NCBI RefSeq assembly: GCF_032884065.1
Contig: NC_088866.1
Location: 32,345,519-32,409,518, forward strand
Direction of reading: 5' to 3'
DNA length: 64,000 nt
Source of the DNA: Artemia franciscana
Lineage: Eukaryota > Arthropoda > Branchiopoda > Anostraca > Artemiidae
Part shown: positions 23,011-45,281 of the stretch, in pieces
How the letters are laid out: every line of letters starts with the position of its first letter
How positions within the stretch are numbered: the first letter of the stretch is position 1
Program-made: the position numbers and the translations under genes
Notes under the pieces: model-generated
Seen by the model: the letters and a program-made list of their open reading frames with translations, nothing else
Databases searched by the model: none
Told to the model about the DNA's origin: nothing

Positions 23011-25965
23011 TTAGGAGCAGTAGGGTTCAATTGATGCATCTCTTTGTGCTTCAATTGCATCATTATTTATCCTTTTTCTCTTCAGCAGTTTCCCATAGTT
23101 AATTGTTAGTAGGGCTCTTATTGTTAGTGAAATAAGAAATACCATGAATATAGTGATTATAATATTATACCAGAGTTTGGTGAGAACAAACCGTATTGGC
23201 TCTCCATGTATTTCAATCTTTGTTCTTCGTCAGTGAATAAGGGTATTTGCATATCTAACGCTTCCTTTATTTTTGTTAATTGCATTGTACCTTTAATCTT
23301 TTCTATTTTTGGCCATATGGATGTTTTAGATTCTTCATCATTTATATTCGGAATCGTGAAGGACAAGTTTATTCCTTGAAAATTTATTATTTTTGGGCTC
23401 ATGACGTTAGTGCTGGTTGTGATTAGAGGTGTTTGGACGGTTGTTTCTTTAGTTACAAGTCTGCAACCTTGTTTGATTGTAATAGTCCCAACATCCTGTA
23501 ATAATATTTCGGTTCGATAGCTGGGGTCAATTTTTTCTGTATTGTTATAGCAGGATAGGGTTCCTACCGTCTTTTTAGGTACTGTAAATAGCCATAAGTC
23601 GTTCCGTAAATTAATGAAAGTTTCTCTTTTGGTATTTCCTATTAAGGCTTCACAAGAATCAGGAATATTTTGTTGCTGCGATTCCTTTAGGAATAGATCT
23701 AGCATGCATGATCCTATCTTTACGTTATATATAGGTAATGTAAGTTGGCAGACCAAATTTTTAAATGACACGCATTCTTTTAATTCTTCGGTATTTGCTA
23801 GTGCGTATTTTCTTCTATCTTGATCTATTAACATATATTCTGCTTCTGGGATGATGCTAATGAAGGAGTTTGTCTCTTTAATATTGATGGGAAATGTAAA
23901 TATTTTGTATAGGTCATATATGGATTGTTGATTACTCAAAGGAATTGTGACTAAAGCGAACAGTTGCTCATTGATCTCGGTGATATGTACCTTTAGTTTG
24001 GTATAATATAAAAACAAGTTAGCTACTTCTGGTTCTACTGGTAAGTGGAGACCAAATGTTAAGTGAGTTTTTATTTCGTTTAGGATGTTCTTAAGATCCG
24101 AGGGATCCACTAAGTCGTAAGAAAGAGTTCCTCCTGTTAACTCAAATAACGCGAATTCAAATTTACTGACGTCAGTGGCCAATATCAACAAAGACATAAT
24201 AACAATGTCGAGTGACACCATCGTTAGGCTGGAATCAGAGATTACTCTGTCTACTTTATTTTTTAAATAGTTCATTGTGCTGACTGTTCTTGATATTTTT
24301 TTGGATATAGCCTCGATTTTGTCTTTTTGATAATTGGCGATACTTGCTTGTATTTTTTGGACATGTAGTGTTGTATTCATGGCTGTGTTGAGTCTTTTAA
24401 CATTATCTCTTAGTATATTCAAATCTTCTTCGGTTGACAATTGGGATTAGACTTGTTGATCGTTTATATTTACTTCTTCGGAAAAATACTTCGAATATAC
24501 GTGTAGTGCTTTGTTTAAGTTTTTGTATTTCTGTATTGAATAGTTCAAATAACGCCTCTAACCTTTGTCTATATAAGATAAGGAATGCCTGATGAGTTGA
24601 GATTTTATGAGCATTTTCCATGGTTAATTCCGGGAGGGGTTCTAATTCATCCTTTGCTGGTTCGTCGGCCATGGCCAGTCGCGCGCAAATTTTTTTACCA
24701 TCTATTGTCCAAAATTCTCTCCAGTGACTTTCATCTTGACATTTTTTGTCTCCATCCACACATCGTGTTCTACCATAGTCTGTCTCGACAAAAGGGATGT
24801 GCCATCTAACTTGTATTCTTCCCTTTTTCGAAGAAGTCCATATCCAGCTAGTTGATTGCCATGGTTGCCTTACTGTTATTAAAATTTCATCGTTTTTAAT
24901 TGGCATTAGTACACCAGGGATAGTTTCTGTAGCAATTTCTGACATTGAGGTGTCTAATTCTATTGGTTGTGGGTCAGTCGTCGTGGGGTTTGACGAGGGG
25001 AATGTTTCTTCCACTTCTGTTATTGGGGTATGTTCAGTTTCGATTGTTGTTGGTGTAAAATCAGTTTCTGCTGTGGTTTCCTCGTTCTGAGTATCGTATT
25101 TCCAGAAGGTAGTCGTTTCGTATTTCTTGGAGGTGCTTGTGGAGATTTCCATTAATTCGTTTGTGCTTTCTTCGGTATAAGAAGTAAGATGTGGAACATG
25201 GGAGGTCGTGTTGATTTTGGTAGCTTCCGTTGTGACGTTTATTATTCTACAGAAGTATTGACATTTAAACTTGTATTTCGGTTTGCTGGTACCATTAGTG
25301 GAATTTAATCCCACTTCAATATTTTCTATACCTCTTATTATCTCTGGTATTTTATTTGTTCACGTTACGAGGTCAGATACAATGCTTGTTGTTTGGGTTT
25401 CAATTGTAGCGGTTTGCTGTGTGTATGGGGAAATACTGGTTATATCTTTCGTCTTAACCTTCGTTGGTTTTGTTTCAGATAAATTTATTTTTTCTTGTAT
25501 TGGTTTGTTCTTAGCCCTGTTAATTTGTTTTGGTCCATTCCATAGTTCTTTGAAGAAATTCCATACTGTGGGCAATTCGTTCAATAATGCATATTGTCCA
25601 TCGTAAAATTTTCTTTGTCTAAGTTGTGTCTTTATTGGCTCAGTTGTATCTTGGGTCTCTTTATCGATATCTGAGTTTTGGTCTTCGTTAATTGACTCAA
25701 TGGTTTTTCCGAATCCTATAGCTTTATCGATTTCGGCCATTTTCGCATCAAAATCATCTACTATTCTTTTTGTTTTGACTTCGGGAGAGTTAGGGGATGT
25801 TTCTTTCTTTTCTTTATGGTTGTTTTTGCTTGGTTGTAGTCCCTTATCTGATTTTAAAAATTGAAAAATTGATTCTTTCAGGTCAAATGTATTTTTCTCC
25901 AGTCTTATAACTTGTTGGAATAATGTTTCAAATGGTTTAAGGTCTAGCTTCATAAAGTTTTCCAA
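23011..25965 (-). pseudogene. env: Baculovirus F-like envelope gene (errantivirus Env type), broken
   Basis: Three pieces are visible on the minus strand. Piece 1 (25953, first ATG, to 25360) is a charged N-terminal part without a clear signal peptide. After an in-frame TGA the same frame continues through a Thr-rich region and a Cys-containing domain to 24403; it ends in a basic furin-like motif, RSKYKR, followed by a short hydrophobic stretch. A one-step frame change near 24440 leads to the large membrane-side subunit (to 23157), beginning STEEDLNILRDNV. Its long heptad-rich helix and later Cys pattern are typical of the Baculo_F family. A second frame change near 23170 precedes a ~23-residue membrane segment and a short basic tail ending at 23011. 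In intact relatives this is a class I fusion glycoprotein at the cell and virion surface. This copy cannot make it as it stands. Confidence 0.8.
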
Positions 25966-27059
25966 GCGTTGTTACTAGTTAGAAGTAAATTTTAACCTAT
26001 ACACATGTTAAACCTATACACATGGTCGTCAAAAATGTTAAGATCATCATTCTTATCTGTAATTAACATTTAATCAATTATTTCTGACAAAGTATAATAG
26101 AAAGAAAAAACGGATTGCGTGACGCTTTATTAAGTATTAATGGAGTTTTTGAAGATAGATTTAAGGGGCTAATACGCTATCGTCATTAAGATATAGTATT
26201 AAAAAAATCAATTTAAAAATATTAATAATTCTATATTGGGGGATTAAAGAATATCGAAGATGCTTCCAATGAAGACTCGTGTCTGAATAGACTAAAGGGC
26301 CATTACGAAAGATCTTTGGCACCACCCATTTCAGAAAAGGGGCTATTTTAAATAGAGGAAAACAAGGCATTTTTGAAAATAGGGGGGAACAATCCCTAAA
26401 AATCACAGAATCTTAACGAAAATCATACAATCGTATTCTGAGGATCAGAGAACCTAATAGCAAAAGTCTCATGTATCTTTCTTCAAAAATGTTGAATTTT
26501 TGTCAGAAAATTAATAATGGGTGTGTGTGTTTTTAGAAGATAAAATAATAATATTTCAAGGGTGCAATCATTAGGTATTTAGCAAATTAAAGTACTAACT
26601 TAGTCTTACTAATAATCTATTAGGGACTTTTTTTTTAAAGTTTTATTTTAGGTCTAGGATGGAGTTAATTCAAGACCTATTAGATGTTCATTACTCTCAT
26701 TGGGGGAGATGGATAGACATTGGCAATATTTATATTAAAGTTATTTTATTTCTTACAAAAATACATAGATATAAAAAAATTAATAGCACTTGTATTTTGA
26801 GAGGATCGCCGTTAAACTTCTTTATGACTCAAAATAGTTGAAAACGAAAACTGTTTGAAATTTTGCTAACCAAGGGTAAAATTTGCTTAAAACACATATC
26901 TGATAAATGTATGAGACACTTTATTTATTTGTTACGGCCGGAAACTTAAATTATTTGTCATGTATGTATAATAGAAGGGTAGGCTTATTTTGTTGTTAAA
27001 GTTTGATGCCTAGTTTCAATTAATTGGTTAAATTTAATTATGGATTAGTTAACTTAATT
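25966..27059 (-). other. Non-coding part of the retroelement with an inserted repeat
   Basis: About 26150-26530 carries a fragment of the dispersed repeat seen at 2.1 and 4.3 kb (phrase GAATCTTAACGAAAAT, then 'ggatcagagaacc'). The rest is AT-rich, without recognisable genes. Confidence 0.55.
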
Positions 27060-27195: not shown

Positions 27196-29846
27196 TTAAT
27201 ACAGTCTAATCAAAGGGTGGTAAGGGCCAAAGCGTTGACAGGCCTCAGCACCTAATCTAGCATAGAGTTTTTTATAAACGAAAATAATATCAGTGGCACA
27301 AAACTTTCTGATAATCTTCTGATTTCTATAAGAACGCGGCAGATACAATAAATATTTACAATAAAGAAAATACATAACTCTTATGCCCTGCAAATCTTGA
27401 TTATTAAACAACGGGCGCAAACCGGAAAGAAACAATATAGAATGATCGCAATATGTAGAATAAAGTCTGGATAAAGCCTTTCGTGAAAATCTGCCTCGGT
27501 TCGGGACAATTTTCGCGTACCCTTTTTTAAGTTTACTTTTAATATCATTTAGCCCACAGGATCGAAAAGCTGATAAAGATGAACAAATATTAATACCAAG
27601 CCACCGAATCGAAGAAACGAGCTTAACTGAAAAATAACCACAATCAAGATCACTACTTTGATGCTTAGCATTAAAAACCAAATATTCACATTTTTCAGTA
27701 TTAAGTTTGAGGCCGATTTCCTCAAAAGACTTAGAAACAAGCTGGGTCGACTTAATTAGGCTAGATTTAGTGCGGCTGATCAAAAGTAAATCATCTGCAT
27801 ATGCAATGTACGAAAGATTAGTTAGGCCTAAAAAACATGATGGATTAATACGTGGCAAAACAGAATAAAGACAAGCTTAAAAAGATAAGGGGATAAGACT
27901 CCTCCTTGCCTAAGACCAGAACGGATGGGGATATTACCAACGTAGGTGTCACCTGACTTGAGTCGAACATATGAATTAGCATACCAAAAACGAAGAGTTG
28001 ATATAATAGACACATTTGCACCAAGTTGGATTAAAGAATACCAAAGTTGGCTATGACAAATTGAATCAAAAGCTTTTGAAACATCGAGTGCACAAAAATG
28101 AACCTCAAAACCATTTTTATGCGCTTCAAGTAATAGCGAAACTATAGCACGATGAGCATGTTGGCATCCTATATACGGCTTAAAGCCAAACTGATTAGAC
28201 ATATAATCTACATTAGACAGGAGATCAGGGAGCAAAACATATTCAAATACTTTACTTAAAGTACAAGCAACCGTAATAGGCCTATACGAAGCGCAACTAG
28301 TTGGGTCCTTACCGCGTTTTAAAATTGACGTAATGTTACCAACTAAAAAAGAATCAGGGACTAAAGAAGAGCATAAACACATCTGAAAAAGTAACTGCAA
28401 GTGATAAACTAATTCCTCCGAATCGGTGTTGAGGTGAAAAGCACTGATCCCGTCTATATCATAAGAATTCGATTTTAGTCTCTCTACACTTCTTTTGACA
28501 CGGTCAACACTAACGGGAGGTACTTGACCTTGAATGATTTTGTTAGGCAACAGATTAGAACAGAGCTTGGCAAAACGAAAATGAACCGCATATATCACTG
28601 TATCGAAAATGTTACTATAATGATTGATCCATGATACATTAGGGATTCGGTCAGCCGTAGGCGATCTATCAAACTTCGCGACATTGATCACTTTTTTCCA
28701 CTGGCTAGGAGACTTAGGAAATTCAGCACCATTGTACCTAATTTTTCGAAGATAGCGTTTAAAATCAAGCTTTGTTCTTTGTTTAATATCGAAAACATTA
28801 CCCTTTAAGGGGCGGCCGCAAGCTATCCAAATTTTTAGCCACAACTTAGCCCGATTTTTTATTGTTTTGAGCTCTGGGTCATTCTTCCAAATTGAACTTC
28901 TTGTTTTTGCTCTAAAGCGACATAGGGGAACAGCTACTTCTTCAGACCTCTTTAAGCACGATACAATGTGGCTATAATAAATATTAAGCTGAATTCTGGC
29001 TTGTGGGGACCCAACGCTTGTACAGAACAGATTAAAAGGGACTTTAATCGTTGATAGAAGGCTAACAATCGTAGAAAAACAAAGAGGCCAGTCAGCTTTG
29101 TTCCATTCTCTTTTAGAAATCCATTTTCTAGAATTGGGACGAAGGTTCTTCTCCGCAGTAGCATTAAGGGTAACAGTGAGGGATAGGGGGAGATGGTCGT
29201 AATCACGCTCATCCTGATCAACATGGACTTCGCCACAGATGAGACCAGAAGAAACGATACAATGGTCAATGTCTGAAAGTGAGCCACTATTATGGATATA
29301 GGAATGGGAGGCATCTTTCTTCAAAATTTTGTAACTATTCGGTAAGGAATCTAACAGAAGCTCAGTCCGCACTGATGAAGAGTGAATGTTACAGTTCAGA
29401 TCACCGATTAATAACCAATCCAGTCCACTACTCTCAATGCCATTCAAAAGACTTTTTATTTATGCGCAAAATTTTGTAAATTTAGTTAAACTTCGGAGGG
29501 ATTTCTGGTCGCAGGGGAGATAAACATTAATGAGGACAAGGTTGGCAAGACGAATAGCAATATAACAATCACTCTCGTGATAGCATAAATGGGGTGGTGA
29601 AAACAGCGTCTTTTTTATTAAACATGCTAGGCCACCTGATGGTCTGCCAGAGGTTTTGCGTGCACTTTTAGAAAAAACTGAGTGTTCGTCACTTCTCTGT
29701 AGGGAGTTTAAGCTCACTAAAGGTAGGAGATGCTCCTGGAGGAATAAAACATCAAAATTTTCTAATTTCTGATCCAAAGAAACGTCTTTATCCTTAGTAC
29801 CGTTAATATTGAACGAAAATATAGTGAAATTAGTCTTAGCACTCAT
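27196..29846 (-). pseudogene. LINE ORF2: endonuclease and reverse transcriptase, two lesions
   Basis: It starts at the ATG of the ATGA overlap (29846). Endonuclease: FNINGT, FLQEHLLP, GRPSGGLACL and, after the break, LIGDLN, SDIDHCIV and DYDHLPLSL. RT: SYRPITVACTLSKVFE, CALDVSKAFDS, SGLRQGGVLSPYLF and the active site YADD (just past the second break). There are two lesions. An in-frame TAA at 29462-29460 lies within the endonuclease, and the frame resumes immediately. A frameshift at about 27858 lies between RT block 4 and YADD. The C-terminal ~110 residues after RT show no RNase H or zinc motif. In an intact relative the protein would carry out target-primed reverse transcription. Confidence 0.85.
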
Positions 29847-30931
29847 TTTCTAGTATAGGACGATCGTTTCGACAGAAGTTCACGAAGAATTCGGCATTTC
29901 ATTGAAAATGACACATGATTGCCTTGACAGTTCGCACATTTTGGTGTAGCCTGGCACGGAGAATCAGGCGAGGATTCATGTTGCCCTGCGCAACGGGAGC
30001 AGCATTTTTCTTTATCACAATTTGATTTTAAGTGATTTGGTGATTGGCAATTATAACAGCATTTGGGTGGGCGTTGGTATTCGTAAACTTGATATATCTC
30101 ATACCCAATCTTTATACCAAGTTGAAGTGCATTAGCCAGCGCAACAGCGTTTTCAAAAAACACTCTAACAGCCAAAGAATTGCCTATTCGCTTCGCATGA
30201 GTAATATTATTGCAATCAATTAACATTTCCTCATCAAAATTGGTCGGTATACCTTTAATGATTCCAATATATTTCGTTTCTTTTACTTTGACGTCACAAT
30301 CTCTCATTACATTTGGAACGGCATTGCAAAAGTTCCTTGCAGCAATCTTGTCAATTCGTACCACTAGCTTATCGCCAGAGGGCTTAATGCTGTGAATACA
30401 TTCATGACCTGGAATAAAGTCTATTATTTCGCGACGCTTGGCAGGATTATCTAATTCTGATGGGACTTTAGAAATAACAACGGTCGTCAGATCGGGATTC
30501 AATGACTGAGCGCCAGGGCTGCTAAAAGGGGGGAATTTAAGATCATACGACGAAATCTTCTCACGGATTTGCTTAAGTTCCGAATCAATGCTTACAAGCT
30601 TTGAGGCGAAGCTAGAATAAGCCACAGCAGGAATAACAGGAACCTCGGTAGGTAAAATAATCACGTATGTAGGCAAAGACAAATTTTCGCTGTCGCATTT
30701 CTGGAAGATTTCCATCATGTCCTTAATGTGACGGTAATTAGCTTGATCGCCTTGGCGTCTTTGCACACGTTCACCCTCGTAAACATGAGACCAAAGTTCT
30801 ATTTTAGCCGCCATAATAGACTTCTCATCGAAAAACCCAACAGCATGGTTAGCAATAACTTCATCACTTACTCCTTTTTTAAGATTTGATTGCACGAAAT
30901 TCAACACCGACGAATGTACATATTCCGTCAT
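29843..30931 (-). CDS. LINE ORF1: gag-like protein with CCHC knuckles
   Basis: An open frame of 362 codons from the ATG at 30931; the frame is open nine codons further upstream without an ATG. The C-terminal third has three Cys-rich knuckles: CCYNCQSPNHLKSNC, CCSRCAGQHESSPDSPC and CANCQGNHVSFSMKC. The preceding ~180 residues (PDLTTVVISKVPSELDNPAK, then GIIKGIPTNFDEEML) look like two RRM-type modules, as in ORF1 proteins of I/Jockey-type LINEs. The role is RNA packaging. The stop overlaps the ORF2 start by ATGA. Confidence 0.85.
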   Translation of the reverse strand: MTEYVHSSVLNFVQSNLKKGVSDEVIANHAVGFFDEKSIMAAKIELWSHVYEGERVQRRQGDQANYRHIKDMMEIFQKCDSENLSLPTYVIILPTEVPVIPAVAYSSFASKLVSIDSELKQIREKISSYDLKFPPFSSPGAQSLNPDLTTVVISKVPSELDNPAKRREIIDFIPGHECIHSIKPSGDKLVVRIDKIAARNFCNAVPNVMRDCDVKVKETKYIGIIKGIPTNFDEEMLIDCNNITHAKRIGNSLAVRVFFENAVALANALQLGIKIGYEIYQVYEYQRPPKCCYNCQSPNHLKSNCDKEKCCSRCAGQHESSPDSPCQATPKCANCQGNHVSFSMKCRILRELLSKRSSYTRK

Positions 30932-31000
30932 AATGGTATAACCAACAAATGTGAACAATTAGCCAAAGTCCAAAATCAAATCAAATTATTACTCACCATG

Positions 31001-33092: not shown

Positions 33093-33728
33093 TTAGTTGC
33101 ATTTAGGGGTGTTTTGTTCAAATGTTACTTCTGCTATTATCTCGTAATAGTTTTCTTGGCTTTTGGGTCCGAAAATTGATAGTAATTGTAACCCGTTTAC
33201 AAGTTCTCTTCCAAATTTCATGTTTTTAAAATTGGAAGTTAAGGAGGGGTGAAGTTTTCGTGCCTCTTTCCTTAGCTTTTTTACTTTTCTTAGGCCAACT
33301 AACGTTAAATGTGGCTTCCAGTTTTCTTGATTTACAGTTTGTACTCCGCTTTTGGTAATTTCTTTAGAGATTTCTTCTATGATTGGATTTAAGCGCGTTT
33401 TAACTACCTCTTCGTTCTCTAATTTTGCATATATAATTTGCTCAAAGAAATCCCCGATGCCTTGAAAATCAAGATAAAGTTTTTCATTTGTAAAATTTTG
33501 TCTATATTTTTCTATGGTTTTGACGAAAGCACTTTTTACATGTTCAATTTCAGTATTATTTTTCAGATGCAATACTTTTAACGTTAGATGGAAATAGTTT
33601 TGTTTGATTAAGGCTTTTGTTAACATAGGGTTTGTTTCAATTACGTGTTTTTGCATTAATGAAGCATTCATCCTTATCTGAGGGTTTTTAACTTGGATTG
33701 CGAGGAAGTAATTCGGCCGAGATTCCAT
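33093..33728 (-). CDS. 2H phosphoesterase, AKAP7-like (possible 2',5'-phosphodiesterase)
   Basis: An intact 211-codon frame with a clear ATG at 33728. The protein has the two HxT motifs that define the 2H superfamily, FHLTL (H47, T49) and PHLTL (H140, T142), 93 residues apart. Surrounding blocks are those of the AKAP7 central domain: PNYFLAIQV at 5-13, DFQGIGDFFEQIIYAKL at 87-103, and a KFGRELVNGLQLLSI-like block at 171-185. Known members of this branch, in some coronaviruses and rotaviruses, cleave 2-5A, and a phage 2H enzyme (Acb1) cleaves cyclic nucleotide messengers. The fold and catalytic residues are seen; the substrate is inferred. The gene lies downstream of the two SOCS-box genes on the retroelement's sense strand, so it is probably expressed from the same or a spliced transcript. 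The alternative is a captured host AKAP7-like cDNA with RNA-processing activity. Confidence 0.88.
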   Translation of the reverse strand: MESRPNYFLAIQVKNPQIRMNASLMQKHVIETNPMLTKALIKQNYFHLTLKVLHLKNNTEIEHVKSAFVKTIEKYRQNFTNEKLYLDFQGIGDFFEQIIYAKLENEEVVKTRLNPIIEEISKEITKSGVQTVNQENWKPHLTLVGLRKVKKLRKEARKLHPSLTSNFKNMKFGRELVNGLQLLSIFGPKSQENYYEIIAEVTFEQNTPKCN

Positions 33729-33857
33729 TACTTCAAATCTTTAGACCAGTCCAATTTCTAAAAAAAATTAAATTGGGTTATATTAATAATCATTGGGTGG
33801 AGTTAGGCATGTTTTCATAGATAATTTCGCGGGATTAGCTGTTTGTTACTCAGAGGT

Positions 33858-34957
33858 TTAAAATTTTTGTAAAGTAGACAGTTTTGTTCCACAGTTGATG
33901 TCAAAATTATTTTGCACATTGAAAATTGGTCCGCCTATATATGTTAAAAAATCTTTTGATCTTGGAATATGAGCTGACCAAAAGGTTAATTCAGATATTT
34001 GACCTTTATTTTCTGAATTGTCTTCCGTGAACATTAGATATTTTTGTAAATTTTTAGGTATTTGAAGGCTCCACAGGGTATAATTTATATTTCTTTTCCG
34101 CATAAGGAGTCGGACGTGCTTTCTACACTGTTCTTTTAAAGTTAAGGGTCCTGACACGTTATGGATTACTTTGAAATTTTATGGAAAAATAGGGGGTCTC
34201 TACAGTTCATTAATTTTTCAAATACGATTATATCTGTTTGAGGCGCTATTTTTGACGCAAAATTGTCATCGCATTCGCTACAGGTAAAGATTATTTGTTT
34301 CAGTTCATTGTAGTCTGGTTCATAAATGTGGAATTTTGGACCGTTTCTTATCAAATTACTAGCTGAATAATGGTTCTTGTAGTCTTTATAAATTTTGTTT
34401 AGTATGCTTGGTTTTTCCAACAAGACATTTGTATTTCTTTTTATCAACATTGACAAAAATCTGAGAGGCCATATGATTGTATAGCCTCCTTCATTATAGA
34501 TTCTCCAGAAATTTTCGCTGATCAATGTTGCTACTAGAGGGTATTTTTTGAGGGGGATTTTGTTAAGTAAGATCGTAAAGGTCCGAGACGCAAGTTGCTG
34601 TTTATATTGGAAGTTTTCTTTTCTTATCTTGCGTGTAAATGAACAAAATAACAAGATGAACAAAATTCTTGTTATTAACTTATTAGTGATGCTTACAGGA
34701 ATTTCGAGAAGTTGGTAGAGAGTTTGGTATTGTAATTCTCTTGTTGCTTTCTTAACGGCATTTTCTAAATCTTGGTCTAATAATTTGTGTTCAATTTTTG
34801 ACAAATTTGGCAAACTTTGTGTTTTACATGGAAACCAAGCTGTTCGGTTTTTCAGGTATCTAGGGGGAGTTTTTATGGTTCTAGTTTTTATATAAAAACT
34901 TTCCCCATTCCTCAACCTGGTAAGGTTGGGATAACTTAAGGTTCTTTTTAATGGCAT
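33858..34957 (-). pseudogene. Second SOCS-box protein, paralogue of the upstream gene, frameshifted
   Basis: The ATG at 34957 opens a 263-codon frame that stops at 34166. A different frame continues to 33858 with the missing C-terminus, so one small indel near 34160 splits the gene. Along its length it matches the 363-residue neighbour: N-terminus MPLKRTLS versus MPGQRTLS; LQYQTLYQLLEIPV versus LEYNTLYSLLQVPV; YPLVATLISENFW versus YPLIASLIRENFW. After the break the BC-box TLKEQCRKHV is followed by a LQIPKNLQKYLMF segment. Tandem duplication with divergence of well over half the residues implies an old duplication under constraint. The ubiquitin-ligase adaptor role is inferred from the SOCS box. 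Confidence 0.78.
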
Positions 34958-35124
34958 GATATTTCTTTTTAAATTTTTGTTAGTTATAAGCAGGTTAGTA
35001 AGTTAATTGGCGGTTACCTTGACACTGGTTTCTTCTAGAATCTCGTATGACGTGTTTATTAAGGTATTGATTTCTATTCTCTGCCAACCAAATTTTTCTT
35101 TTATTTTACACGGTTCTTCCTTGT

Positions 35125-36216
35125 CTACAAATTAGAAAAGTTACATAAGGGGGGAGGAGAAAAAAGGGTAAAGGGTAAAAAGGGACCGTCAATTTCATAA
35201 TTTTCCGTTATTCTTAAAATTGGGCCACTATTGGCCAGTAAATTGTACTCTGACTTTAAAAGGTAGGGGGTTTTAAATGTTAACTGGAAGTCCTTGTCAT
35301 TTATATCGGGGCCGTTTTCCATGTACATTATATATTTCTTTAGGAAAGTGGGAATATGGAGCCTTTGCATGGAATAATTAATGTCCCTTTTCCTTAATAT
35401 TTGCCGTATTTTCTTCCTGCATAGATCTTTTAGACTGAGTTTATTTGAGGTCGTGTGAATTATTTTATAAGTCAATTCCTTACGAAAGCATAGCGGGCTA
35501 GCTGTGTCTAGGAATTTCTCATACACAATGATGTCTTTATCTGGCAAAATTTTTGATCCAAAATTTTCATCATTCATGTAGAATTTTGTCGTTACATTTA
35601 TTAACTCCATATACTGTTCATCATAAATATAATGGGTTGAATTTTTTACAATTATTGGGTCAAAATTGGCACTGTATCTCAAATAATGTTCATATATTCC
35701 CAACAATATATTTTCATCTTCCACTATTTTGTAATTCACATTTAGTAGTAAGTCCAGAAACTTTAAGGGCCATAGTATTTTGAAACCTGATTCTTGTTCT
35801 ATGTGCCAAAAATTTTCGCGTATTAAAGATGCTATTAAAGGATACGCAACGGGGGGCATTGCTTGGAGTAGGGCTGCGAAGGTGTACGAAGCATTTTTGT
35901 GCCTATAATCGTAATCTTTGCTCAATATATCTAGTGAAAATGATCCGTATAATAGGATGATTATTCCGTGTATTATGAGATCCTCGTTAAAAATAACGGG
36001 AACTTGCAATAATGAATATAAGGTATTATATTCCAAGTTCCTTATTGCATTAGTTATTGCGGATTCGAAGATTATTTCCCGTAATTCATAGTCTATTACC
36101 GAGAGGTTTTTTAAACTTATGGTTTTATTTGAAATCCAAAATTCTGGTCTCGCAAACATCAGGTCTTGGTCGGGTTCTAGGGTGTCGGTATTACTTAAGG
36201 TTCTTTGTCCCGGCAT
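35125..36216 (-). CDS. SOCS-box protein (putative Elongin BC-Cullin adaptor)
   Basis: An intact 363-codon frame, ATG at 36216. Residues ~260-299 form a SOCS box. The BC-box SLKDLCRKKI (S261, L262, C266, I270) fits the Elongin C-binding pattern [STP]LxxxCxxx[AILV]. LHIPTFLKKY at 286-295 follows, in the place of the LPLP Cullin box and the conserved YL end. The N-terminal ~240 residues are predominantly helical in appearance, with repeated hydrophobic patterns (TLYSLLQVPV, YPLIASLIRENFWHI, ILWPLKFLDLLL). They recall degenerate ankyrin repeats of ASB proteins but show no clean ankyrin signature. A C-terminal extension of ~64 residues follows. SOCS-box proteins recruit Elongin B/C and Cullin 5 or 2 to ubiquitinate the partner bound by the other domain. 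It lies in the pol-env interval, same strand, directly upstream of its paralogue. The target is unknown. Confidence 0.82.
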   Translation of the reverse strand: MPGQRTLSNTDTLEPDQDLMFARPEFWISNKTISLKNLSVIDYELREIIFESAITNAIRNLEYNTLYSLLQVPVIFNEDLIIHGIIILLYGSFSLDILSKDYDYRHKNASYTFAALLQAMPPVAYPLIASLIRENFWHIEQESGFKILWPLKFLDLLLNVNYKIVEDENILLGIYEHYLRYSANFDPIIVKNSTHYIYDEQYMELINVTTKFYMNDENFGSKILPDKDIIVYEKFLDTASPLCFRKELTYKIIHTTSNKLSLKDLCRKKIRQILRKRDINYSMQRLHIPTFLKKYIMYMENGPDINDKDFQLTFKTPYLLKSEYNLLANSGPILRITENYEIDGPFLPFTLFSPPPLCNFSNL

Positions 36217-36328
36217 TTTCCCGGTTAGTACTGGTCACACGTATAAGCAGGCTAATTATCTAATGAGTAATTACCTTTTTCCGCCTTGAGTCCTTCTGGT
36301 GTTTCGTCTAAAAAATTGTAGATTTTGT

Positions 36329-36847
36329 TTATTGTTTGAATTTTCTTGATTTTAATTTACTTTTAAATGCGTCTTTTTTTGCTTCTACCGATTTTTTTCT
36401 CTTTAAGAATATGTTATTTCCCCTTACTGCGTAATCTTGGGACGTTGGATCATACATAAATTTGGCATAATGTCGGATTTCATCTAAGGGGTGGTGAATT
36501 CCTTCGTACTTAATACAATTTTCATTTCCTTCGATCTTATAGCAAATTTTCGGTGGCCTACATTTATCAATTAAAAGTAGATCAGTTTGATTTGGGCCCT
36601 TGCAAAACCAATAGCTTATATTAAATTTTTGTTGTAATTTTCTTATTAATAGTTGAAGGCTTGTCAAATTTTTTCCTTTCTTACTTTTATTTGAATATTT
36701 TATTTTTACTTCTCCTCTCGCGGGTTGATATTTAGGAGTATTCGCTAATTTTAAGCCAAATCTATATGTATGAGGTTCAAATTTTGTTAAATCGTAATTG
36801 AGGTACCATGTTTCAGCATACACCTCTTTACCATTCTCATCCTGCAC
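36329..36847 (-). CDS. Unrecognised accessory ORF between pol and the SOCS-box genes
   Basis: The frame has no ATG at its upstream edge: the first listed codon is GTG at 36847, and the frame is open for about 19 further codons to a stop near 36905. The real start may be a splice acceptor. The product (172 or ~190 residues) has a Tyr-rich N-terminal part (AETWYLNYDLTKFEPHTYRF), four Cys in the middle (WFCKGP, DKCRPPKICYK, NENCIKY) and a strongly basic C-terminus (KKSVEAKKDAFKSKLKSRKF) that could bind nucleic acid or act as a nuclear signal. I do not recognise the family. It is on the retroelement sense strand, 112 bp before the first SOCS-box gene. Confidence 0.55.
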   Translation of the reverse strand: MQDENGKEVYAETWYLNYDLTKFEPHTYRFGLKLANTPKYQPARGEVKIKYSNKSKKGKNLTSLQLLIRKLQQKFNISYWFCKGPNQTDLLLIDKCRPPKICYKIEGNENCIKYEGIHHPLDEIRHYAKFMYDPTSQDYAVRGNNIFLKRKKSVEAKKDAFKSKLKSRKFKQ

Positions 36848-36905
36848 TAAAATCGCGGCCGCATATATAATGTTTTCCTTAGCATGGATAATTGAAATAA
36901 ATTAT

Positions 36906-38035: not shown

Positions 38036-41002
38036 TTAATAATCTAATTTATCTGGTTTTTTGACAACTCGGCCTGACCTTGTTGTTACCTTCTCTTCGG
38101 TAGACTCGGTTTTTTTCTTTGGCTTCGCTAGCAATATCAAGTCAAACTTTTTATATTGTTTTTTAAGAAATTTTTGCCCTTTAATTTGTGCCTTTTTAGC
38201 CTGGGCAGTTGCACTCTGTGGTCTTGTTCCTTCCATATCTTTGGGCTCATTTGTGCCTGATTCACTCTCAGTATCTGAGGAACTAGTTGTAGATTTAGTA
38301 TCTGGTTCTCTTGAAGTAGAAGTTTGATATTTAGGTTTAGATCCAGCCTGACCTTCGTAAATTTCTTCACCTCGTGAAGTGGAGGGTTGATTGATTGACT
38401 CGTCCTGTTGATCTCTGGGCTCGGGAGAACTGAACGATTCTTGGGAGCTTTGAGAGGATTCAAATGTCTTCTTGGGGTGCCTCCACTGCTTGAAAGCCAT
38501 GTCTTCCGGGGGGTGAGGAATTGTTTGTATTAAGGTTTCCTTCCAAGATACCCAGTCCTTTGGTTTTGCCTTTGAGACGGTTATATCGTGATATTGTTGT
38601 TCATCTGTAGCTGGATTAGTATCAAGTGTACTTTGTCTAGTTTTAGTTGGGTAATTAATAAGATCCATAGCCTCCCGCAATGTTTGCCGTTGCGATTGGT
38701 AGACCTTTTCTGACTCTATGTCACCAGGGGTCTGTATAGCCTTATTTAATTCATCTTGTAACGAAAAGGGTCTGTCTATTGGTGTGACAGGGTGTACCAA
38801 ATCGTCGGGGAAACGTTTTGGTGGAAAAGGTGTCGAAATTCGATCCGGGAAAAATTGCGTTTGTGGAGAAATTGTATAGTCCAATTCTTCTGATTCTTCA
38901 CTGGAAGATGAATCGCTATTCCTCCGTCTCCGCGTAACGGGGGTACTTTTTTTTGGGGGGGGGGGGGTAACCATATTTGTCATGGTTAGAAATTCATTAA
39001 ATTTTTCTTCGTCACTACTGTTTTCAAAATATCCTTGTTTGAAATTAAAAGGTTTAAGCTCACTTAATCTAGAGCGAGGTGGTTGATTTGCGTCCTCCGA
39101 GGTATTTGATGTTGAAGGTTGAGGGGTCCATGTTTCTGTGAATTTTGCCCTTTTTATACGACTAACATGGGTTTTATAGATTTTTCCTGTTTTTGGTTTT
39201 AATAGTTTAAATGTATTATCATACCTTTTAATTATTCTTAACGGTCCTAGGTACCGGTCCGAAAGTTTCTTGCCGTCCGATTTGTTTTCATTTTTTAAAT
39301 AAACGCAATCTCCTACTTGGAAATCGAGTTTACCTTTGACATTAGGAATATTTTTTGCTTCTTGCTTTCTTTTCAATCTTTCTATTTCTTGCTTTACAAG
39401 TTTATAAGTTTTCCTCATTCTATTGATAAATTCTTGTTTATAATCTTGAGAATCATTATAAAATTGTCGTGACTCTATAGTTTCATTATAAGGGATTCTA
39501 AAGTCTCGTCCGAATAATATGTAGAATGGGTTATCACGAATGACATGGGAATAAGCTGTATTAATTACATTTGTTAAATAAGGTAAGGTTTCGTGCCAAT
39601 CCCTGCGATTTTCTTTCGTATAAATACTTAAAATATTAGAGAATAGTTTGTGTCTGTTCTCGATTTTCCTATTGGCCTGTGGATGATAGGGGGTCGATAC
39701 CAATTTATTTATTTGAAGGAAAGACATTAAATCCTTGGTTAGTTTCGATACAAAATTAGGGCCATTGTCGCTCAATACTGTATTAGGAATAGCGAAATTA
39801 AGAAATATTTTGGCAAGAGCTTTCGAAGTCGCATAAGCGCTTTGATTTTTTAATGGTTTAGCAAATGTGAAACCGGAAAAATGATCGATTACTGACAGTA
39901 CACAGGTATGTCCTTCATTAGACGTGGGTAATCCTCCACTTGTACCATATAAATCAAAAGAAACTATGTCAAATGGTAACCGGGCCGTAGGCGTGCTTCC
40001 TATCGTTGGATTCGGGTAGACTTTAGGATTTTTTCTTAAATTACAGGTTTCGCAATTATTAACATAATTCTTTAACTTTGTTAAGGCTGAAGTAACGAAA
40101 AAGTATTGTTTTAGTCTATGGAATGTCTTATCTATTCCCAAATGACCTCCTACTTCAGAATGAAAAAATTCAAAAGCGGGTTTTTCCAAAATTTGGGGTA
40201 AAACTGGTATAATGGAAGTTTGATTTCTTTTCTCGCTATCTGTCATTATCCTACATAGTATTTTTTCGTCGAAATCATAATAATAGTTATCAATTTCTTT
40301 TTTAAAAGATTTCATTTCATCAGGTAACTCTTTATCATATAAGAAATATTCTATTAGAGCGGCACAAGTATCATCTTTCTTTTGATACATTTTTATAGAA
40401 TTCAAGGAAAGTGGGCTGTTTTTCTGTTCCTTCTCAACCGAATTATTCTCAACCGATTTCATTTTTAAACCCTTCTTTCTTGGAACATACTTTGCTTTTA
40501 TTGTGTTGACTTCTTCGTTTTCATTTTCTACTTTGATATTATCTGGAAACCTACTTAGATAGTCACATGGGGCATTTTGCTTTCCCTTAAGATGTTCAAA
40601 TTCATAATCTAAGTCTTGGATTTTCAAAATCCATCTCGCGAGTATTCCCGTTGGCTTTTTGAAAGTTTGCAAATATTGCAGGCTTTTGTGGTCCGAACGC
40701 AGTTTAAATTTTCTGCCTACCAAATAATGTCTGAACTTGTCCAAATGGTGGATAATCGATAATAATTCAAGCTGTGTAGCAGAATAATTACTTTCTCCAG
40801 AAGTCAGGGTGCGAGAAGCGTACGCTATTACTCTTTCTTCCCCATTTATTATTTGGGAGAGGATCGCCCCAATTCCCTTGTTTGAGGCATCCGTTGTAAC
40901 AACGAATTGTCCTGTTTGGAAGTCGGGTAGCGATAAAATTGGTTCTGAGGTTAGAGCCTTTTTTAAATGATCTAATGCATTCTGAGCTGTATTAGACCAC
41001 AC
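38036..41002 (-). CDS. pol: Pol, C-terminal part: RNase H, integrase and a long tail
   Basis: An open frame of 988 codons; its upstream edge is a frameshift, not a true start. RNase H (residues ~30-150): D38 in TTDASNKGIGA, E79 in SATQLELL, D104 in LRSDHKSL. Integrase: zinc-binding H281, H287, C317 and C320; catalytic D350 (FDIVSFDLYG), D412 (VLSDNGPNF) and E448 (RKIENRH), a complete DDE triad. A GPY/F-like module follows near residues 560-610 (DRYLGPLRIIKRYDN). The last ~350 residues are Pro/Ser/Glu-rich and acidic, ending TTRSGRVVKKPDKLDY, a type of end seen in gypsy/errantivirus Pol. Integrase inserts the cDNA. The frame is fully open despite lesions on both sides. A G13 run at ~38957 encodes a Pro stretch. 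Confidence 0.93.
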   Translation of the reverse strand: MWSNTAQNALDHLKKALTSEPILSLPDFQTGQFVVTTDASNKGIGAILSQIINGEERVIAYASRTLTSGESNYSATQLELLSIIHHLDKFRHYLVGRKFKLRSDHKSLQYLQTFKKPTGILARWILKIQDLDYEFEHLKGKQNAPCDYLSRFPDNIKVENENEEVNTIKAKYVPRKKGLKMKSVENNSVEKEQKNSPLSLNSIKMYQKKDDTCAALIEYFLYDKELPDEMKSFKKEIDNYYYDFDEKILCRIMTDSEKRNQTSIIPVLPQILEKPAFEFFHSEVGGHLGIDKTFHRLKQYFFVTSALTKLKNYVNNCETCNLRKNPKVYPNPTIGSTPTARLPFDIVSFDLYGTSGGLPTSNEGHTCVLSVIDHFSGFTFAKPLKNQSAYATSKALAKIFLNFAIPNTVLSDNGPNFVSKLTKDLMSFLQINKLVSTPYHPQANRKIENRHKLFSNILSIYTKENRRDWHETLPYLTNVINTAYSHVIRDNPFYILFGRDFRIPYNETIESRQFYNDSQDYKQEFINRMRKTYKLVKQEIERLKRKQEAKNIPNVKGKLDFQVGDCVYLKNENKSDGKKLSDRYLGPLRIIKRYDNTFKLLKPKTGKIYKTHVSRIKRAKFTETWTPQPSTSNTSEDANQPPRSRLSELKPFNFKQGYFENSSDEEKFNEFLTMTNMVTPPPPKKSTPVTRRRRNSDSSSSEESEELDYTISPQTQFFPDRISTPFPPKRFPDDLVHPVTPIDRPFSLQDELNKAIQTPGDIESEKVYQSQRQTLREAMDLINYPTKTRQSTLDTNPATDEQQYHDITVSKAKPKDWVSWKETLIQTIPHPPEDMAFKQWRHPKKTFESSQSSQESFSSPEPRDQQDESINQPSTSRGEEIYEGQAGSKPKYQTSTSREPDTKSTTSSSDTESESGTNEPKDMEGTRPQSATAQAKKAQIKGQKFLKKQYKKFDLILLAKPKKKTESTEEKVTTRSGRVVKKPDKLDY

Positions 41003-41034
41003 AATTGTTTGTGGGTTGCCTCTCGTGAGGTCCG

Positions 41035-42404
41035 TTAAAGGTTTTGCAACTTGTGCGTAATTATATTTTTAACGGATTTTATTTTTTGAGGGTCTGGGGA
41101 AATTTGTCCTTGCGTTACAACTACTCCTAAAAATTTTAGTTTTGTTTGAAAAAGATTTACTTTTTCTGGTCTACATTTTAAATTGCCTTCTCTAAATTTC
41201 TCAAATACTTTCGCTAGGGTCACTAAGTGGTCCTCCGCGTCTTTGTCCATAGCTATGACGTCATCCACAAAATGAATTATGTTATTTAGGCCTCTTAGTA
41301 AATGAAGGAGGGGTCTACACAATGCACTTGAACTAGCTTTTAGTCCAAATGGTACTCTTAAGTATTCATAAGAACCACATTCTGATGTTGAAAAAGCTGT
41401 TTTAAATATATCGGCCCCTTTTATTTTTACTTGATGATAACCTCAAATCTAGGGAAGTAAATATTTTATTTTTATTTGATATTGAATCTAGAATTTCGTC
41501 TATTCTAGGTAGGGGAAATTTGTCACTCACTACCTGTTTATTTAAAGCTCTATAATCTACCACTAATCTAAGGTCATTATTCTTTTTCGGGACTAAAATA
41601 ACGGGGGCAGAGTATGGGCTTATGCTTGGCCTTATGATTCGATTTTTTTCGAGTTCATGTATTTTGTTTATTAGCCATTCCTTATGTTTATAAGGAATTC
41701 TGTATGGTTGTTTTGCAACTGGCGGCCCCGTGGTTTGTAGTGCGTGTTCAATAAAATGGGATAAGTCCTATGTCATCTTCAGATGTCGAAAAGACATCTC
41801 TATATTCCCATAATAAGTCGCATAACTTTTGTTTTAATGACAGGTCGACTATGTGACTTAGTTCGAATTTCTCAAGGAATTGAGATCGCGTCAGTGGATA
41901 TTTTTTGTCAACGTGAACATTAATATTATTCACGAAGTTTTTTTTCCAAATTTTTCCAATTATTAATATCGGATTCCGATACTACTTGTATCTCTACTAA
42001 ACATGTACCTTTACTTAGGGTAATTAGGTCATTTTCGTGGGTGTTCGTTACCCAAATGTAACCTTCTCCCTTTTCGTAATTTATAATTTGTTCTTCACAA
42101 ACTACATATTTCGGGAGATCTTCCGACGGCGATGCTACCCAAATTTCATTTTTATCATTAACTGGTTCTAACATTTGTGATATTTGGACCCTCTGCATTG
42201 ATTTAGGGGAAATTTTTGTTTTACGCATTACGAATCCATAATATTTTTCGTTATTTTCTTCTTTTATTGAATTTAGAAGATTCTCTGCTGGTTTTTTTCC
42301 TGGAGTTTCTATTTTTTCAAGTTTTTTCCATAAATAACAAATTTCTTGAATTTGTTTGTTTCTATACTCTTTCATGTTACCTATATTTTCCCTTACTTTG
42401 TTTG
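41035..42404 (-). pseudogene. pol: Pol, reverse transcriptase part, frameshifted
   Basis: Minus-strand frames change at least three times. 42404-41926 holds the pre-RT linker. 41933-41748 holds the RT N-terminal segment, LKQKLCDLLWEYRDVFS then SEDDIGL. About 41740-41450 holds the fingers, with a VPKKN/LRLVVDYRALNK-type block. About 41450-41035 holds YEYLRVPFGLKASSSA and the active site FVDDVIAM. All expected blocks of a Ty3/gypsy RT are present in order, so the lesions are recent, or partly sequencing errors. No functional protein can come from this copy as shown. Confidence 0.85.
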
Positions 42405-43353: not shown

Positions 43354-43709
43354 ATATGGTGTCCGTTGGATAGATAAACTTTGAATTTGCTACATCTAAT
43401 AATATTTTATTTAATTTTAAAAAATTTTGCGCCTATTATCGCTTCGTATGGAAAATTCTTACAAACCATAAATCGAGTATAGAAATTTATGTTATCCTTG
43501 CGCAGGGCTAGGTACACAGTGCCTTTCACATCCAGGTCGTGTCCGGTTACACTTGACAAATTGGGACAGATATTGCTCATTCGTCGTTTAATATAGTTTG
43601 GTAATTTATTAAATACGGATGTATTTATCACATTTACGGTTGCTCCTGAATCTATAAGGGCTGAGAAATAAATATTCCCTGCGTTAAAATTTTCAAATAC
43701 TGGTAACAT
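43354..43709 (-). pseudogene. pol: Retroviral-type aspartic protease segment of pol
   Basis: The 100-codon frame has the catalytic signature ALIDSGATVNVI and the C-terminal AIIGAKFF block (the ILG-type motif of retropepsins). An in-frame TAA at 43409-43407 follows the latter, after which the same frame continues (KFKVYLSNGHHI) up to the RTE insertion. The enzyme would process Gag-Pol. It is inactivated as part of the polyprotein by the stop and by the insertion. Confidence 0.8.
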
Positions 43710-43786
43710 ATTATTATTATTTGCACTTAAAAATGGTATTATTACTGGAGGGGACCTATAAATTATCTTGCCACCAAATTTTGGTC

Positions 43787-44967
43787 CTACGAATTTTGGG
43801 GGCTTATATCGTTTCCCTGGGATTCCCAGATGTTAGATGTAGAACTTTCATTTGTTCTGTTTTGGGTTCCTTGATTATTATTTGAGATGGAGCTATTATA
43901 TGGCTGCCGTCGGCTGATGTAACTTCCTTTTGTATTTCTGTTCCAACTATTATTGGTTTGATTTGGCCTTCCACGACACCCTCCTTGATATTGATACGTA
44001 TTGCGTTCGAAATTTTGATTTTGGGTGGGATAATTATTTCTTGTTACAAAGGTGTTCCCTCGATTGCCTCTAGGGGCATACCCACTATAGTTTGTCCCCC
44101 TGGACAAACGGTTACCCGTTCCCCTAATATTTGGGCGATAATTATTGTTTGCGAAACAATTTCTTGCGATATGTCCTAACCGGTTACAGGTATAGCACCT
44201 TAATGGTTCATTGTTAGTTTGTGCCCTCAATTGATTATTGGGGGCAAAACGTACTTGTCTTGGAGGTGTGGTGGTTCGAATTTGATTTCGAACAGGTTTG
44301 GGCGATGATTCTCGGGAGAAAAATCGCGGAGAGGAATCTCTTGACTTTATCGGGGCTTTGTTTTCTATAGCATTTATTGACAGTTTTTGATGCTGCAGGA
44401 CAATCGAATCAATTTCTACGGCTCTTTCTATTTCCTGAACTGCTAGTTCTAGGTTATCAATATTTTTAGCTATCAAAAGGCGGTATAACTTTGGGTTGAG
44501 TCCCTGTTTAAATGCATTTAGTATGATTTTTCATATAATTCCCCTTCTCCTGGACCGTATCGCGCTTCTGTTGCGATTCTAACCTTATGCAAGTACTCAT
44601 GAAAGTTTTGGGTCTGTTCGAAAGTAACTAGGCCATGTTTCAGTTTATTCAATGAACTTGTTTCAATGAATCTTTTCTGGAAGGCCTGTTGCAATAATTC
44701 TATTGAGTTAATTGTTGAGGTTGCTTCTGTACCTATGGAGTTTTCGATTTGTTTTAGGAATGTTAGCGCCTGTCCTTTCAGTCTTAAAAGTAACATATTT
44801 TTTAATACTTTTAGGTCAATTTTTGTCATTTCCACAAATTGTCCTAAATGGATGTTGAATTGATCAACGTCCGTATCTCCTTCATATTCTGGTAATGATT
44901 TTGCAATTTCTACCGAAGTTGCAATAATTTGTTGCGCTTTTAATATTTCATCTTGTTCCTGGTCCAT
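43787..44967 (-). pseudogene. gag: Gag with CCHC knuckle, one frameshift
   Basis: The ATG at 44967 (MDQEQDEILKAQQIIATSVE) opens a 149-codon frame with a retrotransposon-gag capsid pattern (LLLRLKGQALTFLKQI, then LQQAFQKRF). The frame breaks at about 44520 and is continued in another frame to 43787. That part carries Arg-rich sequence, the zinc knuckle CYTCNRLGHIARNC, and a long Asn/Arg/Gly-rich tail. Gag forms the particle and binds the RNA. The first ATG lies about 300 bp inside the PBS-like site, consistent with a genomic-RNA start. Confidence 0.88.
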
Positions 44968-45263: not shown

Positions 45264-45281
45264 CTTTTTCCGTCCGCGCCA
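45264..45281 (-). promoter_or_regulatory. Probable tRNA primer-binding site
   Basis: On the sense strand the LTR end GTAACA is followed by TA and then TGGCGCGGACGG. TGG starting two bases after the LTR is the usual position and first triplet of a retroelement PBS, complementary to a tRNA CCA end. The tRNA identity was not determined. Confidence 0.7.

What the first reader, a model, noticed from the sequence alone, without database searches (positions are those of the whole stretch)
33093..36905. Candidate counter-defence cassette in an env-bearing retroelement: 2H phosphoesterase plus two SOCS-box proteins
Between pol and env, on the retroelement sense strand, lie an unknown ORF, two tandem SOCS-box paralogues and an AKAP7-like 2H phosphoesterase. 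Errantiviruses normally have only gag, pol and env. Complex viruses independently use exactly these two biochemical tools against innate immunity: phosphodiesterases that remove nucleotide second messengers, and Elongin BC-Cullin recruitment to degrade restriction factors. Their presence together in one endogenous, envelope-bearing arthropod element suggests a retrovirus-like lineage with accessory genes. The domains are read from sequence; the anti-immune role is inference.
Basis: partly seen in the sequence, partly recalled or inferred. Interest (0 to 1): 0.95.

Follow-up and report, generated by a model that had tools for sequence, protein, structure and literature searches.

The report
Brine-shrimp retrovirus-like element with accessory genes
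A family of retrovirus-like elements in a brine shrimp genome carries, between its replication and envelope genes, a conserved set of extra genes resembling tools that vertebrate viruses use against host defences, but what they do has not been tested.

Summary
The best database match names the host as Artemia franciscana. The window copy is one decayed member of a multicopy, envelope-bearing Ty3/gypsy-type family. Of 52 distinct integrase-envelope pairs found on one strand, 48 have the 2H gene between them. Two layouts exist. Layout A, as in the window: unknown ORF, SOCS-box gene 1, SOCS-box gene 2, 2H, env. The accessory genes show dN/dS below 0.5 in all gene-level comparisons. 2H and SOCS proteins differ far more between layouts (dN 0.33-0.43) than integrase or env (about 0.04). 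Catalytic motifs of 2H are intact in 20 of 21 copies. So this is a real, selected cassette, not a chance insertion. Counter-defence is the best explanation but is inference: no STING or OAS domain was found in the genome, in searches without a positive control. Layout B suggests a two-step idea: AKAP7-like enzymes release 2',3'-cyclic phosphate ends, and ANGEL2 removes such ends.

The parts
20204..21879 (-). 3' LTR, about 1.68 kb, TGTTAG...CGTAACA
   Evidence: 98.5% identical over 885 bp to the partial 5' LTR; ends read by eye
45284..46161 (-). partial 5' LTR (3' part of an LTR)
46206..47858 (+). LTR copy in opposite orientation close beside the partial 5' LTR
   Evidence: 96.5% to the 3' LTR, inverted
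45270..45281 (-). primer-binding-site-like sequence beginning TGGCGC, two bases after the LTR
   Evidence: read by eye; tRNA not assigned
43787..45024 (-). gag, two overlapping frames, CCHC zinc knuckle
   Evidence: zf-CCHC 1.5e-5 over cut-off; Retrotrans_gag 7e-4 below cut-off
43407..43832 (-). protease region (DSGA motif)
   Evidence: RVP 0.011, below cut-off; motif read by eye
41035..41767 (-). reverse transcriptase, interrupted in this copy
   Evidence: RVT_1 6.4e-16 on 41035-41442
38036..41068 (-). RNase H, integrase and C-terminal extension
   Evidence: RT_RNaseH 2.1e-33, Integrase_H2C2 8.2e-13, rve 1.9e-9
36329..36901 (-). unknown ORF, conserved in both layouts (79% identity); interrupted near its start in this copy
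   Evidence: 150 genome matches, the cap; alignment; no Pfam family over cut-off and no PDB match
35125..36216 (-). SOCS-box protein 1, 363 aa
   Evidence: SOCS_box 3.1e-7; 94% to annotated A. franciscana LOC136028777
33858..34960 (-). SOCS-box protein 2, frame broken near 34170 in this copy
   Evidence: SOCS_box 2.9e-5 in the second piece; open as one 372-aa frame in L010, L012, L013, L014 and L016
33093..33728 (-). AKAP7-like 2H phosphoesterase, 211 aa, little more than the catalytic domain, two HLT motifs
   Evidence: AKAP7_NLS 8.1e-37; AKAP7 in PDB 2.1e-25; motifs
27196..30958 (-). non-LTR retrotransposon coding region inserted between 2H and env in this copy
   Evidence: RVT_1 9.8e-15; in L012, L015 and L016 (layout A) env-like sequence begins about 2.5-2.7 kb after 2H
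23157..25971 (-). env, in three frames in this copy; one open frame of about 1045 aa in L030
   Evidence: 98 loci; L030 open frame matches PDB 'fusion protein' 9w4c at 1.4e-13; hydrophobic N-terminus, RKRR site, C-terminal hydrophobic segment

Best explanation
This is a decayed copy of a recently active, envelope-bearing Ty3/gypsy-type retrovirus-like lineage of Artemia. The lineage has an accessory cassette between pol and env. SHOWN: the cassette is shared by most copies in which pol and env could be paired, occurs in two layouts, keeps its catalytic and SOCS-box motifs, and evolves under purifying selection. INFERRED: it works as counter-defence. The 2H enzyme cleaves a 2',5'-linked nucleotide signal or RNA. 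In layout B the ANGEL-like enzyme removes the 2',3'-cyclic phosphate ends that such cleavage or host ribonucleases leave. The SOCS-box proteins use a helical N-terminal domain to bring a host protein to Elongin BC-Cullin 5 for degradation, as lentiviral Vif does. My confidence is about 0.97 in the shown part; the number below is for counter-defence as the general role.
For: Order: 48 of 52 distinct integrase-env pairs have 2H between; gene maps of 20 fetched copies and of one env region for each layout. Selection: dN/dS within A and within B 0.36 and 0.24 (2H), 0.30 and 0.15 (SOCS1 and its layout B counterpart), 0.24 (SOCS2, A only), 0.29 (ANGEL-like, B only), 0.13 and 0.16 (unknown ORF), beside 0.07 and 0.12 for integrase. 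Motifs: both H-phi-T motifs in 20 of 21 copies. The 2H protein is little more than the catalytic domain: residues 3-200 of 211 align to AKAP7; loss of the AKAP7 nuclear signal is what lets AKAP7 rescue a coronavirus NS2 mutant (PMC8406329, passages). AKAP7-like enzymes were captured repeatedly by nidoviruses and rotaviruses against OAS-RNase L (PMC10835031, passages), and LigT-like enzymes of poxviruses cleave cGAMP (PMC11410667, passages). The ANGEL-like protein hits ANGEL2 at 7.8e-60 against about 3e-31 for CNOT6L and PDE12. 2H and SOCS proteins diverge most between layouts (dN 0.33, 0.43) while env does not (0.035), as expected if the pressure is on intracellular factors.
Against: No activity, binding or expression data. 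No STING ligand-binding domain or OAS1_C found in the genome (no positive control rang, and exons may be missed). The cGAS-like search did not complete. A dN/dS below 1 shows use, not which use; for SOCS1 against older relatives it rises to 0.49. The higher divergence is partly confounded: dS between layouts is 0.44 for integrase, about 1.1 for env and near saturation for the cassette, so parts have different histories. No window of the SOCS genes exceeds dN/dS 1; in 2H only codons 1-60 within layout A do (1.27), on few changes. The layout B second SOCS-like protein is below the Pfam cut-off. The SOCS N-terminal model is weak (mean pLDDT 49.6) and matches no known fold. At least three copies have lost the block (two at C4:20.27-20.28 Mb; one on C20 with only remnants).
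Confidence: 0.58

Rival explanations
1. The enzymes serve the element's own RNA: 2H and the ANGEL-like protein trim or heal RNA 3' ends (2',3'-cyclic phosphates, tRNA primers, spliced mRNAs) or keep RTCB from ligating cut transcripts, and the SOCS proteins time the turnover of element or cell-cycle proteins. No immune signal is involved.
For: NCBIfam gives the 2H protein a sub-cut-off match to RNA 2',3'-cyclic phosphodiesterase. ANGEL2 removes 2',3'-cyclic phosphates and lowers RTCB ligation; RTCB also acts in SOS splicing against transposons (PMC13247085, passages). OAS and STING domains were not found in the genome (uncontrolled).
Against: 2H and SOCS proteins diverge far more than pol and env, unlike a housekeeping role. 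The 2H protein is AKAP7-type (8.1e-37) rather than LigT-type (0.002).
Confidence: 0.27
2. The genes are passengers captured by chance in one or a few copies, without use to the element.
For: Template switching seems to shuffle this family: P0024 joins a SOCS-like N-terminus to the pol C-terminus, and some copies have lost the block.
Against: 2H lies between integrase and env in 48 of 52 distinct pairs; dN/dS 0.13-0.36 within layouts and 0.05-0.17 between; 78 of 150 2H matches are full length without a stop (rows counted).
Confidence: 0.03
3. The accessory genes now serve the host, for example as immunity genes against this or other elements.
For: NCBI predicts genes over these ORFs (LOC136028777, LOC136034345 and AKAP7-like entries).
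Against: They move with pol and env in many near-identical copies; six layout B ANGEL-like genes on six contigs are 100% identical (three of the six contigs are small and unplaced and could repeat another locus). Constraint is seen across the mobile copies.
Confidence: 0.07

Closest known systems
Drosophila gypsy-type errantiviruses (Ty3/gypsy elements with env)
   Same: LTRs, gag, protease, RT-RNase H-integrase order, env open frame with a match to a solved viral fusion protein
   Different: Four to five extra genes between pol and env; env about twice the usual size (usual size recalled). Lineage by RT tree not tested
Bdelloid rotifer LTR retrotransposons with enzymatic ORF3 (DEDDy exonuclease, GDSL esterase), PMC5408684 (abstract and discussion read)
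   Same: LTR elements of small aquatic animals that captured enzyme genes as an extra ORF, with modular exchange
   Different: There a single ORF3, env-like or enzymatic, with no significant departure from neutrality; here a multi-gene cassette beside an env frame, under clear purifying selection
Viral 2',5'-phosphoesterases: NS2, NS4b, rotavirus VP3 (PMC8406329, PMC10835031; passages)
   Same: AKAP7-type 2H domain with two H-phi-S/T-phi motifs captured by a virus
   Different: Here in a retroelement of a crustacean; substrate unknown. 'retrovirus', 'retrotransposon', 'invertebrate' and 'arthropod' do not occur in the main text of PMC10835031
Lentiviral Vif and other viral Elongin BC-Cullin 5 adaptors (PMC4812663, passages)
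   Same: Element-encoded BC box plus Cul5-box-like segment, expected to recruit a host ubiquitin ligase
   Different: Full SOCS box recognised by Pfam, unrelated N-terminal domain, no Vif family match; binding untested
ANGEL2 (6rvz), CCR4-type 2',3'-cyclic phosphatase
   Same: Nearly whole-length match 7.8e-60, residues 18-369 of 372
   Different: Encoded by an endogenous retrovirus-like element; activity untested

Membership tests
Ty3/gypsy-type LTR element with env (errantivirus-like) | LTR pair, gag, PR, RT-RNase H-integrase order | tested here: met
   the protease match is below cut-off and rests on a motif read by eye
Ty3/gypsy-type LTR element with env (errantivirus-like) | membrane fusion glycoprotein | tested here: met
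   L030 env matches 9w4c 'fusion protein' 1.4e-13 (organism not shown); N-terminal and C-terminal hydrophobic segments and RKRR site. No Pfam env family at E <= 1
Ty3/gypsy-type LTR element with env (errantivirus-like) | RT or integrase branches inside genus Errantivirus | not tested
   no tree made
AKAP7-type 2H phosphoesterase | AKAP7 catalytic domain profile over cut-off | tested here: met
   127.5 bits, cut-off 24.4; layout B 133 bits
AKAP7-type 2H phosphoesterase | two H-phi-S/T-phi motifs | tested here: met
   20 of 21 copies; L026 has HVK at the first
AKAP7-type 2H phosphoesterase | cleaves 2',5'-linked oligonucleotides | not testable with these tools
   needs enzyme assay
SOCS-box proteins | SOCS_box profile over cut-off 23.5 | tested here: met
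   SOCS1 30.9, SOCS2 24.6, layout B first SOCS 27.6
SOCS-box proteins | same, for the layout B second SOCS-like gene | tested here: not met
   19.4 bits; kept only as SOCS-like by paralogy (32% to SOCS1)
SOCS-box proteins | binds Elongin B/C and Cullin 5 | not testable with these tools
   BC-box and Cul5-box-like segments read by eye only; the motif rules are recalled
ANGEL/CCR4 EEP family (layout B only) | EEP domain, closest to ANGEL2, catalytic residues present | tested here: met
   Exo_endo_phos 7.4e-16; ANGEL2 7.8e-60; LQEV in 5 of 7 copies (absent from the two shortest frames), NTHL, GDLN and SDH in 7 of 7; role of these motifs recalled
Lentiviral Vif | Vif homology | tested here: not met
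   no Vif family among Pfam matches; 'works like' remains open

The most novel reading that the evidence does not exclude
An invertebrate retrovirus-like lineage has evolved a modular counter-defence cassette independently of vertebrate complex retroviruses, and layout B holds a two-enzyme pathway: an AKAP7-like 2H enzyme cuts 2',5'-linked nucleotides to 2',3'-cyclic phosphate ends, and an ANGEL-like phosphatase then erases those ends, so that neither the messenger nor its immunogenic or RTCB-ligatable product remains, while SOCS-box proteins degrade a host restriction factor. This would point to a 2',5'- or cyclic-phosphate-based antiviral pathway in crustaceans.
Probability: 0.2. Interest if true: 0.95.

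Novelty: new variant of a known kind. Interest (0 to 1): 0.85.

Why it matters
Retroviruses with several accessory genes are known mainly from vertebrates (general knowledge). A multicopy, recently active invertebrate lineage with a selected cassette of a 2H phosphoesterase, SOCS-box proteins and an ANGEL-like enzyme would be an independent case, and its targets could reveal what a crustacean cell uses against retroelements. Each gene makes a direct test possible: identify the nucleotide that 2H cleaves and the protein that the SOCS proteins bind.

Tried and rejected
Chance insertion into one copy: rejected. Host gene cluster: rejected, since the genes move with pol and env. ANGEL-like remnants in layout A: none by tblastn in the window stretch and 13 fetched layout A copies. 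Viral contigs: no relatives of the unknown ORF or 2H in IMG/VR (the tool may leave out records of this genome). The unknown ORF has no Pfam family over cut-off and no PDB relative, and its single-sequence model is poor (pLDDT 37.6). By eye it has DTE, TDLL and HHPL-(D/E)-E spaced like a DEDDh exonuclease; this is a lead only and the motif rule is recalled. The fold search with the SOCS1 model gave no match at E 0.001 or better. Host immune genes: STING and OAS1_C not found, without positive control. The full boundary of a layout B copy on C14 was not found: the upstream stretch missed the LTR and the downstream one has a gap. No Rfam family in 19-48.5 kb, no tRNA. Literature, by listings: SOCS box + retrotransposon + LTR + envelope gave 4 papers, none on this by title; 2H phosphoesterase + retrotransposon gave none; Artemia + retrotransposon + envelope + gypsy gave 2, neither on this by title; captured genes in LTR elements gave 16, of which the bdelloid paper was opened.

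Counts to read with care: genome searches score only the best candidates (150 of 343 for 2H, 98 of 1278 for env, 116 of 1584 for integrase), so absences are not proven and totals are lower bounds. One search gave 50 of 54, but there two integrase matches could share one env; one search pairs each env once and gives 48 of 52. For the ANGEL-like gene, one search used 51 loci picked by hand from 113 rows (32 with 2H); one search merged all 113 rows into 69 loci, 53 of them with a best E of 1e-20 or lower (33 with 2H within 6 kb); the 16 weak loci include exon-like matches of what I take to be host genes. One second-piece env row was dropped, leaving 98. Copies for one search were chosen from the 2H hit list, so they lean to copies with an intact 2H gene. 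Env selection rests on three copies only.
Full report
What was checked. The window is C4:32345519-32409518 of a 1.27-Gb genome. Its SOCS protein is 94% identical to an annotated Artemia franciscana protein, so I take the host to be A. franciscana or a very close relative. On the minus strand lie, in order: a partial 5' LTR, gag, protease, RT, RNase H-integrase, an unknown ORF, two SOCS-box genes, a 2H gene, env in pieces, and a 3' LTR. The two LTRs are 98.5% identical over 885 bp, so the insertion is fairly young. An inverted LTR copy lies beside the partial 5' LTR. A non-LTR element sits between 2H and env. The window copy is defective in RT, the unknown ORF, SOCS2 and env.

The cassette is a property of the family. 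The 2H protein finds 150 genome matches (the cap), all below 1e-55, in bands of about 95, 80, 67 and 53% identity; 78 of the 150 are full length without a stop. Of the 150, 88 have a SOCS-box profile match within 3.5 kb upstream on the same strand, and 61 of 98 env loci have a 2H within 20 kb upstream. Of 117 integrase matches, 80 have a listed 2H within 15 kb downstream and 37 do not. When each env is paired with its nearest integrase within 28 kb, there are 52 distinct pairs, and in 48 the 2H gene lies between. The four exceptions are two neighbouring copies on C4 where env follows integrase directly, one copy on C2 with the unknown ORF but no listed 2H, and one on C10. A copy on C20 has only 2H and env remnants. 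Deletion derivatives therefore exist, but among paired copies the cassette is the rule.

Two layouts. I fetched 10 kb (one 4.7 kb) around the block in 20 copies and mapped ORFs. Layout A (eight close relatives of the window, plus five older, partly decayed ones) has unknown ORF, SOCS1, SOCS2, 2H, then about 2.5 kb without a recognisable gene, then env. Layout B (seven copies) has unknown ORF, one SOCS gene (45% to SOCS1), 2H (53%), an ORF of up to 393 aa (broken in two of the seven), then a further SOCS-like gene, which I saw whole, with env after it, in one copy (L029) and in part in others. The 393-aa ORF is an ANGEL-like member of the endonuclease/exonuclease/phosphatase family: Pfam 7.4e-16 and ANGEL2 (6rvz) at 7.8e-60 over nearly its full length, far ahead of CNOT6L and PDE12. 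Merging all 113 rows gives 69 loci; 53 have a best E of 1e-20 or lower, and 33 of these have a listed 2H within 6 kb upstream. Layout A copies show no trace of it. In a small tree the first SOCS genes of A and B group together (support 0.97), so the first SOCS gene and probably 2H predate the split.

Selection. Pairwise dN/dS (Nei-Gojobori, my script): 2H 0.36 within A (36 pairs), 0.24 within B (21), 0.13 between (63); first SOCS gene 0.30, 0.15 and 0.17 (44 of 63 between-layout pairs saturated); SOCS2 0.24 (36); ANGEL-like 0.29 (21); unknown ORF 0.13, 0.16 and 0.05 (9 of 49 saturated); integrase 0.07, 0.12 and 0.10; env 0.08 (1 pair) and 0.03 (2 pairs). Against older layout A relatives the values are 0.21-0.28 for 2H, 0.25-0.27 for SOCS2 and 0.33-0.49 for SOCS1. 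All are below 1: the proteins have been used while the copies multiplied. Between layouts dN is 0.43 (SOCS), 0.33 (2H), 0.12 (unknown), 0.045 (integrase) and 0.035 (env). Because dS also differs (0.44 for integrase, 1.1 for env, above 2 for the cassette), recombination has probably given pol a different history, and the faster protein change of the cassette is suggestive, not proven. Windows along the SOCS genes give no ratio above 1; in 2H only codons 1-60 within layout A do (1.27, few changes).

Recent activity. Six layout B copies on six contigs encode an identical ANGEL-like protein, eight env matches share one score of 858.1 bits, and the frame that holds integrase is open for 1640-1649 aa at 22 of 117 matches (hand count). 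Some of these contigs are small and unplaced and could repeat another locus.

Proteins. The 2H protein is little more than the AKAP7 catalytic domain, with both H-phi-T motifs in 20 of 21 copies. The SOCS proteins have a C-terminal SOCS box with BC-box and Cul5-box-like segments (read by eye) behind a predicted helical domain of low model confidence with no fold match. The unknown protein is the most conserved of the cassette (79% between layouts) and has no recognised relative; its DTE...TDLL...HHPL(D/E)E pattern suggests to me a DEDDh exonuclease-like protein, unproven. The env frame has a hydrophobic N-terminus, an RKRR or RKKR site, a C-terminal hydrophobic segment and a match to a solved viral fusion protein.

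How it may work. AKAP7-type enzymes cleave 2',5'-oligoadenylates into products with 2',3'-cyclic phosphate ends, and cytoplasmic AKAP7 can rescue a coronavirus NS2 mutant (PMC8406329, passages). Nidoviruses and rotaviruses captured such genes repeatedly (PMC10835031, passages), and poxvirus LigT-like enzymes cleave cGAMP (PMC11410667, passages). ANGEL2 removes 2',3'-cyclic phosphates and thereby lowers RTCB ligation (PMC13247085, passages); RNA with such ends can be immunostimulatory (PMC8406329). Layout B thus holds two enzymes whose known relatives could act in series. SOCS-box proteins recruit Elongin BC-Cullin 5 (PMC4812663, passages), as Vif does. I judge counter-defence most likely (0.58) and an RNA-processing role the main rival (0.27). 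Against a 2-5A or STING target stands that neither OAS1_C nor the STING ligand domain was found in the genome, though no control rang and exons may be missed.

Comparison. Bdelloid LTR elements also carry captured enzymes, but as a single ORF3 and without a significant sign of selection (PMC5408684, abstract and discussion). In the listings of searches I saw no paper describing SOCS-box, 2H or ANGEL-like genes in an LTR element. I rate this a new variant of a known kind: an envelope-bearing LTR element with a multi-gene, selected accessory cassette.

Recounts changed 50 of 54 to 48 of 52 distinct pairs and 32 of 51 to 33 of 53 ANGEL-like loci; ten env matches of one score became eight.

Noticed in passing
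C4:20267956-20272089 and C4:20280012-20284145 (G000): Two neighbouring copies in which the integrase frame runs directly into env as one open frame of 1963 and 2335 aa, with no room for the accessory block.
   Followed up: partly
window 36329-36901 and relatives L009, L022, L023, L028: Unknown ORF with a DTE...TDLL...HHPL(D/E)E pattern that resembles a DEDDh exonuclease; no database match.
   Followed up: partly
L009, L010, L013, L015, L018, L025, L028, L029, within 75 bases upstream of SOCS starts: A recurring AGGTAA (donor-like) and CTAAC (branch-like) pair before SOCS genes, and acceptor-like polypyrimidine-AG before 2H and env (read by eye): possible spliced accessory mRNAs.
   Followed up: no
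window 45284-47858: Partial 5' LTR beside an inverted LTR copy (98.6% over 924 bp), a palindrome-like arrangement.
   Followed up: no
P0024: Predicted protein joining a layout B-like SOCS N-terminus to the pol C-terminal extension, a likely template-switch chimera.
   Followed up: no
C3608:246000-303000 (G000): Cluster of six unknown-ORF matches, with three 2H and four SOCS-box matches, within about 57 kb.
   Followed up: no
window 4946-10017, 42350-42961, 58208-62523: Further non-LTR retrotransposon ORFs or fragments, read by eye.
   Followed up: no
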